Shown here: one piece after another, positions 33,091-41,398 of the stretch
Position numbering within the stretch: the stretch's first letter is position 1
Layout: each line of letters starts with the position of its first letter
NCBI GenBank assembly: GCA_936450465.1
Contig: OW388297.1
Location: 29,964,387 to 30,028,386 of the forward strand
Source: Gibbula magus
Lineage: Eukaryota; Mollusca; Gastropoda; Trochida; Trochidae
DNA: 64,000 bases
Direction of reading: 5' to 3'
Program-made: the position numbers and the translations under genes
The notes under the pieces: model-generated
What the model was told of the DNA's origin: nothing
The model's input: only the letters and a program-made list of their open reading frames with translations
The model's database searches: none

Positions 33091-33196
33091 TGTTCTATAC
33101 AATCTTGGAAGAAAAAATATCTTAAGATTTGGCCTATACCATCTTGGAATATTATTATATTCCAAGATGGTATAACAAATCTTAAGATATGTACGG
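33091..33196. repeat. Left 106-bp TIR with 74-bp internal palindrome
   Basis: 26 bp of TGTTCTATACAATCTTGGAA... precede a palindrome (33117-33190) whose arms read ATATCTTAAGATTTGG... and back, followed by GTACGG. The terminal repeat can thus form its own hairpin as well as pair with the right terminus. Confidence 0.85.
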
Positions 33197-33223
33197 CTCT
33201 AAGGTGTCTAATTAGCCTCATGG

Positions 33224-33493
33224 TTGGCGTTCACACTGCACTGTGTAGGCATAGCATTACTATTGATAATTACTGTGATGGCAAATATGAATTTTGCTGG
33301 AGCGCCCTTAATTAACTATCTGTGTGTAGAGGCTGTCGTGTATAGCGTTTTAGAATTTCAAGCAAGTGGAATAAATAATCAATCGTCATGCGTCTCGCCA
33401 TTATCTCGGTACGCTTGTCTCAGCCCTGGACTATTTCTCGGCGCGCTCTGTTGCACTGCGCTGTGTCAACGGTATATGATATTTCGGTTATGA
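33224..33493 (+). other. Open frame just inside the left TIR, not recognised
   Basis: An 89-codon open frame begins 28 bp inside the left terminal repeat (hydrophobic start: FTLHCVGIALLLIITVMANM), with Cys-rich composition further on. The first codon given is non-ATG. No family match, and it may be chance. It is the only open frame of any size close to the left end of the 8.3-kb element. Confidence 0.2.
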
Positions 33494-33924
33494 AGCTTTC
33501 GTTGTTCATGTTTAGCATGTACAGTATGATACTTATCTTTTACGCAGCTTTTTGTCACATTACACAACGTACGGGAGAGTTAAAATAAGTCGCAATTTAT
33601 CTCAAATGAAGTAAAGTTAGACGCAAGCCACCGTGCTTTAAAGGTTCCTTATGCGTTAGAAGGAAAATATAAATGAACATTACGGCACCATTTAATAATT
33701 GAATCTCTTAACCTGTGATACTGCTGATTTCAATTTAAATTTCATTGAGACTGCATACTATATTTCGTTAATGCCATATTACCGTAATTATAACACACAA
33801 TCACATTTCGAATTTATCAGTTTATCACATGGATTAACCAAGCTTGGTATCAAGTGAAGACATCATTCAGACAGAAATACTTACTACTTGCCATAATTTT
33901 ATTACAAGCTAGTTGAACAGCTAA

Positions 33925-34040
33925 TCGCAGACAGACAGACAGACAGACAGACAGACAGACAGACTGATTGTTTAGTAACGTCTCACCATATGTAAATAGA
34001 ATGAATACATATATAAAATTTGTACAAAATTGATAATAGT
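33925..34040 (-). mobile_element. Very short LINE 3' end with (CAGA)n tail
   Basis: A (CAGA)n tract (about 33927-33963) is followed by TTGTTTAGTAACGTCTCACC and ATATGTA. The same junction occurs at 36775-36815 at the 3' end of the LINE on the minus strand. This is therefore a severely 5'-truncated copy of the same family, in the same orientation. Confidence 0.6.
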
Positions 34041-38825: not shown

Positions 38826-39739
38826 CAACATTTGAATCACATTTGAATCACCTCTTCCCACATTATAACGCTATGCCTCATTAATTTATATGTATATGCT
38901 GAAATAACAGCTTTGTGAAATGCCATAATGAATCATGAAGTGATTACGTTGGGACAGTATTGTCCTGTCACCACGCTAATTGTTGTAATCACAGTTACAT
39001 CCTGTTAGATAGTTGTCGCCTTTCACTGATTGGCAAATCTTGAGATATGAAGTATATATCTGTCGTCACTGGTCTAATTTTCTCATAGCAACTTTAAATA
39101 AATTCGTTTCCTGCTCTTATTCTATCTGCCACATGAATGAAATAACGGAATCCTGAAGTATTTACGATTAAGAGACAGGACTGTCAAATGTGTCACAAAT
39201 TATGATTGAAATGAATGTAAATATGACAGAATAATTTAAATATGCTAACAACCTTTTTGTCTTATGAAACACTGTTAAGAGATATCGACATATAAACAAC
39301 ATAAAAAGTAAATGGGAAAAGAAGCAGAAGAAACTAGGTAAGGGACTGTCGACTAAAACACGTACCTCTTACAGTTAAAATAAAATTGCAACATGTGCTG
39401 CAGTATATTAATTCTAAAAAAGTAAAATCGTGCATTTGATAATCTAACTTTTTAAAACTTAATATGTATATATATATCTGTTTAGCAATGTATATCAATA
39501 TGTATCAAGTGTTTATGTTCACGTATTTGTATGTATTGTTTATGTACATGTCTATGTTTAATAACCTGTCATTCCTAAAAGTGTCCATACAAACTTGTGT
39601 TTCCAATGTAACTCTGCTGTTATGGCAATAATTTCTTCATCAAATGACAAACTCGTCCATAAACAAGTACTTATGTATCTATAGCAATATCTTCATCTTT
39701 ATGTCTGTTAAATTTAAATTAACAGTTCATCAAGGTAAT
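38826..39739. other. Non-coding interior of the 8.3-kb element
   Basis: No open frame above background. One degenerate TTGGCAAATCTTGAGATATG near 39032 resembles the satellite core. Confidence 0.35.
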
Positions 39740-41180
39740 GTATTTAAACTAAGGTCACAGTTTGTATTGAAGGTAATTTTCTTCATACAAATAACATTTT
39801 CATCAAAGTCATTATTTGAATCAAAGTCATTTTTTCTCCAAAGTCATTTTATTTCATCAAAATCACCTTTTTCAGCAAAGTCATTATTTCCTCAAAGTCA
39901 ATATTTTCATTAAATAATTTTTTTCACCAAAGTAATTTTTTTTATCAAAGTATTTTTTTTCGATTAGAGTCACTTTCTCATCAAAGTCATTATTTTCATC
40001 AAATAATTTTTTCACCAAAATCATTATTTTCATCAAAGTCGATATTTTCATTAAAGGCATTTTTTTTCATTAGTCATTTTTTTTTCATCCAAGGCATTTT
40101 TTGCATAAAAGTCACTTTTTTCAGCAAGTCATTATTTTAATCAAAGTCAAGATTTTCATCAAAGTTATTGTTTTCACCAAAGTTATTGTTTTCACCAAAT
40201 ACATTTTTCAGCAAAGACACTTTTTTAATCAAAGTCAATATCTTTATTAAAGAAATATTATTCATCAAATGTATTTGTTTTCTTCAAAATAACTTTTTCA
40301 ATCAAAGTCATTTCTTTTCACCAAATCACTTTTTTCATCAAAGTCAATATTGTCATCAGAGTAATTCTTTTCCATCAAAGTCAATTTTTTCATCAAAGTC
40401 AATATTTTCATCAAATAATTTATTCACCAAAATACTTTTTAAAAATTAAATTCACCAAAGTCTTTTTTTCCCATCAAAGGCACTTTTTTCAGGAAAGTCA
40501 ATATTTTAATTAAGGTCAATATTTTCATCAAAGTCATTTTTCACCAAAGTCAATATTTTTTTAATCGAAGTCAAAACTTTCATTAAATCATTTTTTTCAC
40601 CAAAATCATTTTTTTCACCAATATCACTTTTTCCATCATAGTCGATATTTAATTTTTCACCAAAGTCAATATTTTTTTAATCAAAGTCAAAACTTTCATT
40701 AAATCATTTTTTTCACCAAAATCACTTTTTTCATTAAAGTCGTTATGTTCATTATTCTTTTTCATCAGAGAAATATTTTCATCAAAGTCCTTTTTTTTCA
40801 TCAGAGTTATATTTTCATCAAATCATTTTTTCACCAAATCACTTTTTTCATCAAAGTCAATATTTTTTCAAAGGTATTTTCTTTCATCAAAGTTATTTTG
40901 TTACCAAATCATTTTTTCAGCAAAGACACTTTTTTAATCAAAGTCAATATCATTATTAAAGAAATATTATTCATCAAATTTATTTGTTTTCTTCAACGTA
41001 ACTTTTTCCATCAAAGTCATTTCTTTTCTTCAAAGGCAACATTTTCGTCAAAGTCATTTTTCCACCAAAGTCAATTTTTTTAAATCAAAGGCAGTATTTC
41101 CATCAAAGTCATTTTTTCACCAAAGTCACTTTTTTCGTATCAAAGACATTTTTTCATTAAAATAAATTTATGTAAACAAT
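39740..41180 (+). repeat. 1.4-kb degenerate minisatellite (TTTTCATCAAAGTCA type)
   Basis: Dozens of units of about 18-24 bp alternate TTTTTCATCAAAGTCA, TTTTTCACCAAAGTCA and AATATTTTCATCAAA variants. The phase drifts, with some larger duplications (for example a block at about 40180-40290 recurs at about 40900-41000). The long translated frames across it are low-complexity artefacts. It reaches to about 110 bp from the right terminal repeat. Confidence 0.85.
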
Positions 41181-41292
41181 TTTCAAAGTCATCTTATTAC
41201 AATATCTCAAGATTGAACAAAATAATCTTAAGATATTTAAATATTCCAAGATTGAACAGGAGGTTTCAGGTTTAGATCATATCTTAAGATTT

Positions 41293-41398
41293 CCGTACAT
41301 ATCTTAAGATTTGTTATACCATCTTGGAATATAAAAATATTCCAAGATGGTATAGGCCAAATCTTAAGATATTTTTTCTTCCAAGATTGTATAGAACA
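41293..41398. repeat. Right 106-bp TIR with 74-bp internal palindrome
   Basis: Inverted copy of 33091-33196 (palindrome at 41299-41372, outer end ...CCAAGATTGTATAGAACA). The one difference I see is in the A+T-rich loop. Just inside it, 41200-41290 has further degenerate copies of ATCTTAAGAT and TTCCAAGATTG. Confidence 0.85.

What the first reader, a model, noticed from the sequence alone, without database searches (positions are those of the whole stretch)
33091..41398. 8.3-kb element with near-identical 106-bp TIRs splitting a LINE
Seen: 106-bp inverted repeats at 33091-33196 and 41293-41398 with one mismatch. Seen: the LINE coding sequence on the minus strand stops at ...VKILW(R) beside one repeat and resumes at RHLLDWI... 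beside the other. Known: in L1/Tx1-type ORF2 these two segments are adjacent. Inference: a single recent insertion of a large DNA element into an old LINE. The interior has no transposase that I recognise and is full of satellites and other insertions, so it is either a very large non-autonomous element or a new kind of autonomous one.
Basis: partly seen in the sequence, partly recalled or inferred. Interest (0 to 1): 0.88.

Follow-up and report, generated by a model that had tools for sequence, protein, structure and literature searches.

The report
Large non-autonomous DNA transposon in LINE
An 8.3-kb piece of mobile DNA has jumped into an old, dead retrotransposon; it belongs to a recently active family with about three hundred intact ends in this genome, whose copies read so far carry no transposition gene of their own and mostly landed in one palindromic target motif.

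Summary
The 106-bp TIRs differ at 1 of 106 positions and split an L1/Tx1-like LINE between adjacent codons, as uninterrupted relatives show. The window's 1.47-Gb genome holds 310 exact copies of the 21-bp TIR end against 0 for the reversed control.

Of 40 inverted pairs examined, 30 have a perfect 4-bp target duplication and 0 a longer one. The target is palindromic, GTR-NNNN-YAC. Fourteen elements read in full (2.3-12.8 kb) share a core that includes an 18-bp minisatellite and, in 12 of 14, an 88-bp satellite carrying the TIR motif. None shows a transposase frame. Private divergence in two core modules averages 1.3%, mostly at singleton sites, so the burst is recent.

It is thus a large, recently mobile, non-autonomous TIR family. 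The mobiliser was not found. TGT..ACA ends, 4-bp duplication, symmetric target and a hairpin inside each TIR resemble a Ginger2-type transposon of the same genome (L089), but the ends are TGTTC, not TGTNR, and the target differs, so membership is not claimed.

The parts
33091..33196 (+). left 106-bp TIR: outer 26 bp plus 74-bp hairpin
41293..41398 (-). right 106-bp TIR, 1 mismatch to the left one
33117..33190 (+). near-perfect hairpin inside the left TIR (DNA fold -26.9 kcal/mol, z -13.7)
41299..41372 (-). same hairpin inside the right TIR
33084..33090 (+). left target flank GTG plus 4-bp duplication copy ACGA
41399..41405 (+). right 4-bp duplication copy GCGC plus target flank CAC
33197..34030 (+). 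family core module A, ending in (CAGA)n and a stretch like the 3' end of the nested LINE; A is 90-100% covered in 13 of 13 other full elements, the last 105 bp in 12 of 13
34031..34799 (+). microsatellite-rich stretch, partly specific to this copy
34800..35045 (+). core module B3, full length in 11 of 13 other elements, partial in one
35046..36516 (+). 88-bp satellite; units carry the TIR motif TATACAATCTTGGAATAT or near it; in 11 of 13 other elements
36517..36773 (+). core module D1, in 11 of 13 others
36774..38835 (-). nested 5'-truncated LINE with reverse transcriptase frame 37036-38796 (RVT_1 E 1.6e-38), covered 0-3% in 13 others; outer limit approximate, read by eye
38836..39790 (+). core module D2, over 90% covered in 11 of 13 others
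39796..41165 (+). 18-bp minisatellite, in 13 of 13 others (low-complexity matches counted)
41166..41292 (+). subterminal region with inverted copies of TIR motifs, in 13 of 13 others
41399..43800 (-). 5' part of the host L1/Tx1-like LINE, decayed
32799..33090 (-). 3' part of the host LINE
27449..28450 (+). uninterrupted relative of the host LINE (empty-site yardstick)

Best explanation
The feature is one copy of a large, recently mobile, non-autonomous cut-and-paste DNA transposon family. A transposase made elsewhere binds the hairpin-bearing 106-bp TIRs, excises the element and makes a 4-nt staggered cut in the centre of a palindromic target, GTR-NNNN-YAC, giving 4-bp target duplications. This copy landed in GTG-NNNN-CAC inside a dead L1/Tx1-like LINE; a ~2-kb LINE inserted into it or into its source copy. 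Shown: the family, its ends, target, shared interior, empty site, and no transposase frame in the copies read. Inferred: cut-and-paste, TIR binding, and that the mobiliser is an integrase-like (rve, Ginger-group) transposase, which I put at about 0.5; the confidence below is for the rest.
For: TIRs and LINE split. Empty-site relatives. 310 exact ends, reversed control 0; 277 ends matching GTRNNNN plus a slightly looser end, control 0. Perfect 4-bp duplication in 30 of 40 pairs, 0 of 40 with 5 to 8 bp. Over 80 ends: G at -7 in 68, T at -6 in 77, A or G at -5 in 76, G at -4 in 60, C at -1 in 59 (the inner four bases are duplicated, so each is seen at both ends). Shared interior in 13 of 13 other elements. 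No transposase seen by eye among frames of 110 aa or more in 14 elements; no Pfam transposase match in two interior stretches of this copy. 146 singleton against 39 shared variable sites, private divergence 1.28% overall and 1.03% here. For the integrase-like mobiliser: a Ginger2-type element in the same genome (L089) has TGT ends, TATA beside all 4 ends seen, TIRs of about 23 outer bp followed by a long hairpin (here 26 bp, then hairpin), and encodes Integrase_H2C2 and an rve-like domain.
Against: This copy's own duplication matches at 2 of 4 bases (ACGA/GCGC) although its interior is only about 1% diverged. 10 of 40 pairs are not perfect, and GTR and YAC are both intact in only 24 of 40. No autonomous partner was found. 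The ends TGTTC break the published TGTNR rule of Ginger1 and Ginger2, and the target is neither CCGG/CCGT nor RTATAY (PMC2836005). I made no control for how common TIR hairpins are in other transposons of this genome.
Confidence: 0.87

Rival explanations
1. Two independent MITE insertions of the 106-bp sequence in opposite orientation bracket unrelated DNA by chance.
For: A 317-bp copy with a perfect duplication exists (L031), so short versions occur.
Against: The LINE is split exactly at both outer edges; interior is shared with 13 of 13 other full elements; the duplications in sister copies are at the outer ends.
Confidence: 0.01
2. An autonomous element of a new kind, whose enzyme is hidden in the interior of this or sister copies.
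For: One locus (L028) has a TIR and core modules followed by a broken rve-type gene. Most pairs were not read in full.
Against: No transposase frame seen in 14 full elements, and none of the five pieces of the L028 gene in 5-kb mid-sections of 6 longer pairs. L028 has no right TIR within the 27.6 kb read; its gene has no closer match than 64% among the 150 candidates scored of 1,574; the 64% relative on C14 has the pieces in the same order, at other spacings, and no TIR or core within the 8 kb fetched.
Confidence: 0.05
3. The family is moved by some other DDE superfamily with 4-bp duplications, or by a recombinase, rather than an integrase-like one.
For: TGTTC ends and the GTR-NNNN-YAC target match none of the 4-bp families whose rules I read (Ginger1, Ginger2, Kolobok, Sola2).
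Against: TG..CA ends, a 4-bp duplication with R/Y just outside it, and TIR hairpins all resemble the Ginger2-type element of the same genome.
Confidence: 0.4
4. A foldback-type element whose TIR-derived repeats grew into satellites, like Tetris of Drosophila virilis.
For: Satellite units contain the TIR motif; size varies widely.
Against: Tetris has TIRs up to 1,735 bp with tandem repeats inside the TIR and 8-10-bp duplications (PMC4079207); here the TIR is 106 bp, the satellite lies outside it, and duplications are 4 bp.
Confidence: 0.1

Closest known systems
Ginger2 (integrase-like DNA transposons; PMC2836005) and the Ginger2-type element L089/L090 in this genome (my assignment)
   Same: TGT..ACA ends, 4-bp duplication, TIR length (50-180 bp published), purine/pyrimidine just outside the duplication; L089 also has a long hairpin inside its TIRs
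   Different: fifth base C instead of R; target GTR-GNNC-YAC instead of RTATAY; no coding gene found; 2.3-12.8 kb with satellites
Ginger1 (PMC2836005)
   Same: 4-bp duplication within a palindromic target, TGT ends, TIR 40-270 bp
   Different: CCGG/CCGT targets not met; TGTNR not met; no gene found
Foldback elements such as Tetris (PMC4079207)
   Same: non-autonomous, variable middle, transposon-linked satellites
   Different: TIR length and build, 8-10-bp duplications
Cg_HINE Helentron-related elements of oyster (PMC7492417)
   Same: non-autonomous elements that carry short satellite arrays between unique flanks, palindrome at an end
   Different: subterminal inverted repeats of normally 11-12 bp; here 106-bp terminal ones with 4-bp duplications
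KolobokP (PMC9587614)
   Same: mollusc-rich DNA transposons whose solo repeats have duplications of 3-5 bp
   Different: long terminal direct repeats, RR..YY ends, no strong target preference

Membership tests
non-autonomous TIR (cut-and-paste type) DNA transposon | inverted terminal repeats shared by many copies | tested here: met
   310 exact ends, control 0; 14 elements with both TIRs read in full
non-autonomous TIR (cut-and-paste type) DNA transposon | fixed-length target duplication | tested here: met
   exactly 4 bp in 30 of 40 pairs
non-autonomous TIR (cut-and-paste type) DNA transposon | no own transposase | tested here: met
   14 full elements, frames of 110 aa or more judged by eye; two interior stretches of this copy against Pfam; the other 13 were not scanned against Pfam
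Ginger2 | 4-bp duplication and TIR of about 50-180 bp | tested here: met
   rule
Ginger2 | TGTNR termini | tested here: not met
   TGTTC at the ends found by BLAST with the whole TIR
Ginger2 | RTATAY target | tested here: not met
   GTR-NNNN-YAC
Ginger2 | H2C2 plus DDE integrase gene in an autonomous partner | tested here: inconclusive
   no partner found; L028 gene unresolved
Ginger1 | CCGG or CCGT/ACGG duplications | tested here: not met
   duplications such as GGAC, GCAC, GTGT, GGCC
foldback | long TIRs built of tandem subrepeats (as in Tetris) | tested here: not met
   TIR is 106 bp with one hairpin
Kolobok | TTAA duplication and RR..YY ends | tested here: not met
Helitron/HINE | no TIR and no target duplication (as recalled) | tested here: not met
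   106-bp TIRs and 4-bp duplications

The most novel reading that the evidence does not exclude
The family defines a new lineage of integrase-like transposons with a 10-bp palindromic target, GTR-GNNC-YAC, and hairpin-bearing TIRs. Copies of the TIR motif inside the element have grown into satellite arrays that may act as extra transposase-binding sites.
Probability: 0.3. Interest if true: 0.72.

Novelty: new variant of a known kind. Interest (0 to 1): 0.55.

Why it matters
The family combines large size, about three hundred exact ends, a young age and a strong preference for one palindromic target. That target consensus is a direct handle on the enzyme that moves it. It is also a case where a transposon's own end motif recurs inside a satellite array within the element, a proposed route from transposons to satellite DNA.

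Tried and rejected
Solo-MITE explanation: rejected by the shared interior. TIR homogenisation by gene conversion, suggested at first by the near-identical TIRs: dropped, because the 40 scored hits are the best of 509 by TIR identity. Five TIRs of the 14 full elements lie outside that list (L020 left, L021 left, L023 right, L026 right and this copy's right one); they show 4 substitutions and an indel (the 55 mismatches printed for L020 are one shifted base), against about 8 expected from interior divergence (my arithmetic). Of the 48 TIRs of the 24 further pairs, chosen by the outer 21 bp only, 45 differ from consensus by 61 changes in all, about 1.3% (my sum); 3 with deletions are left out.

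An autonomous partner: the rve-type gene in L028 was followed and left unresolved; it may belong to a low-copy gene family. Pattern scans of genome contigs and viral contigs gave 0 matches. Rfam at gathering threshold: 0 matches in 32000-43000. PDB with the joined LINE C-terminal piece: one chance-level hit. KolobokP and Sola2 were considered and rejected on published target and end rules. In seven literature searches I saw no title or abstract start that describes this family; they hold only open-licence papers and cannot be searched by sequence. Papers: of PMC9587614 I saw abstract, outline and passages; of PMC4079207 abstract, outline and section 10; of PMC2836005 section 6 and passages; of PMC10045372, PMC4482050, PMC7492417 and PMC3627910 passages.

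Pairs that do not fit: C2:79062091/79082577 (L058/059) is probably a wrong pairing, since one search shows another end at 79078918. L074/075 has flanks that are inverted copies of each other. L076/077 and L078/079 share their flanks and are not independent. All are kept in the counts of 40. The 40 are 16 from the first fetches plus 24 further pairs evident in the first 100 of 310 listed ends (contigs C1 to the start of C5), so they are not a random sample. In one search the B3 piece of L023 (under 200 bp) was dropped, and L014 has none.

Full report
Observation. The two 106-bp inverted repeats at 33091-33196 and 41293-41398 are real and differ at one base, in the loop of a hairpin that makes up positions 27-100 of each repeat. 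The DNA fold of that hairpin is -26.9 kcal/mol, with 0 of 200 shuffles as good. On the minus strand the host LINE reads ...CVHVKILWR up to the right repeat and RHLLDWI... from the left one. Its zinc-binding part matches Pfam zf-RVT weakly (E 3e-4, below the curated cut-off).

Empty site. A second LINE of the same kind in the window (27449-28450, +) runs through the same position uninterrupted, with 26 nt between the matched blocks; it has a frameshift there. The window LINE has 27 nt there if four target bases are counted once. Two further LINEs, met inside sister elements, have the same five codons between two tryptophans in frame: NKLQD in L016 and QDLTE in L037. The codon spacing therefore points to 4 bp; raw DNA alignment scores do not decide (best at 3 or at 4-6, at 2 or at 4). 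L037 has GTGGCAAGAT at that place, so the GTG beside the element is native LINE sequence and not part of the element.

Family. In the window's genome (unnamed, 1.47 Gb, 140 contigs) the TIR gave 509 first-look candidates, of which 40 were scored, all 40 full length at 99-100%. The exact outer 21 bases occur 152 + 158 times, with 0 for the reversed control. 277 ends match GTRNNNNTGTTCTATACAATNTTGG, control 0. I fetched 20 stretches and, with this window, read 14 full elements of 2,332 to 12,833 bp. They share a core (low-complexity matches counted): module A in 13 of 13 others (90-100% covered), the 88-bp satellite and D1 in 11 of 13, B3 at full length in 11 of 13, D2 over 90% covered in 11 of 13, and the 18-bp minisatellite and subterminal region in 13 of 13. 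The nested LINE (36774 to about 38835; 0-3% covered) and the simple-repeat stretch 34380-34615 (0%) are specific to this copy.

Target. Across 40 inverted pairs, 30 have a perfect 4-bp duplication, 5 match at 3 bases, 2 at 2 (this copy is one), 1 at 1 and 2 at 0; 0 of 40 have 5 to 8 bp. Over the 80 ends, G at -7 in 68, T at -6 in 77, A or G at -5 in 76, G at -4 in 60 and C at -1 in 59; the inner four bases are duplicated and so appear at both ends. GTR stands on the left in 34 of 40, YAC on the right in 30 of 40, both in 24 of 40. The target is thus the palindrome GTR-GNNC-YAC with the middle four bases duplicated. This copy sits in GTG-ACGA / GCGC-CAC.

Interior and age. Among frames of 110 aa or more in the 14 elements I saw, by eye, LINE pieces, low-complexity satellite frames and a few short unassigned ones, and nothing like a transposase; these frames were not run against Pfam except in this copy. 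Interior stretches 33197-33927 and 38760-39790 of this copy gave no transposase in Pfam, best E 0.038 to an unrelated family. Five-kb mid-sections of 6 longer pairs held, by eye, LINEs, core or unmatched DNA, and none of the five pieces of the L028 gene. In modules A and B3, 146 variable sites are singletons and 39 shared; private divergence is 1.28% overall, 0.21-4.49% by copy, and 1.03% for this copy. This is a star-like, recent burst. The 2-of-4 duplication in so young a copy is unexplained.

Satellite and TIR motif. ATCTTGGAA occurs 17 times inside the element and 0 times in the rest of the window, and TATACNATCTTGGAA 14 and 0 (both strands). Most of these are satellite units, so they are not independent events. 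Fourteen satellite places are 79-87% identical to about TIR positions 34-62. That the satellite derives from the TIR, or binds transposase, is inference.

Mobiliser. L028 has a TIR, core modules and then a broken gene with an rve domain (E 2.7e-13). But no right TIR lies within the 27.6 kb read, the next match in the genome is 64% identical (150 of 1,574 candidates scored), and that relative on C14 has the gene pieces in the same order, at other spacings, and no TIR or core within the 8 kb fetched. I leave that gene as unresolved, probably a neighbour. A young Ginger2-type element in the same genome (L089, L090; my assignment by the published rules) encodes Integrase_H2C2 and an rve-like domain (rve score just under the curated cut-off). 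It ends in TGTTA with TATA beside 4 of 4 ends seen, and its TIR has 23 outer bases and then a long hairpin, the same plan as here. I ran no control on hairpins in other families. Together with TGT..ACA ends and the 4-bp duplication this makes an integrase-like mobiliser the best guess, at about even odds.

Known relatives. Published Ginger2 has TGTNR ends, 4-bp duplications and RTATAY targets, Ginger1 CCGG/CCGT (PMC2836005). This family fails the end rule and both target rules, so it is not filed as either. Tetris (PMC4079207) and Cg_HINE (PMC7492417) are precedents for satellites in non-autonomous elements but differ in ends and duplications. The phylum of the host was not identified; the resemblance of the window to mollusc DNA is my impression, not a result.

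Noticed in passing
L032 (C3:6832700-6837300) and C3:6836028-6843928: Eight right ends of the same element lie about 1,126 bp apart in tandem; the two read also repeat the host flank, so this looks like a local tandem duplication of an element end.
   Followed up: partly
L028 3379-8775 and L092 (C14:7426800-7434800): Low-copy rve/integrase-type genes in spread-out pieces, same order but different spacing, 64% identical over the rve piece; possibly old or host-adopted Ginger-type genes.
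   Followed up: partly
L089 (C5:16164600-16173900) 3875-5953: Compact young Ginger2-type transposon, 509-aa open frame, TATA flanks, TIRs containing a long hairpin.
   Followed up: partly
L074/L075 (C3:49374742, 49384603): The two flanks of this pair are inverted copies of each other, as if the element end and its flank had been duplicated in inverted orientation.
   Followed up: no
L010 and L019 (C6:17275686 and C6:17263442): Two left ends 12 kb apart have the same 25-bp outer flank, which suggests a duplicated region.
   Followed up: no
window 62256-63751 (+): Another LINE with a reverse transcriptase frame, RVT_1 E 3.6e-16.
   Followed up: no
window 59505-59969: A 93-bp tandem duplication that overlaps the end of a frame with a GxxGxGKS P-loop-like motif.
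   Followed up: no
window 36536-36751 and 38882-39063: The stretches on either side of the nested LINE resemble each other (score 105 against a best of 92 in 200 shuffles), as if it had inserted into an old duplicated unit.
   Followed up: partly
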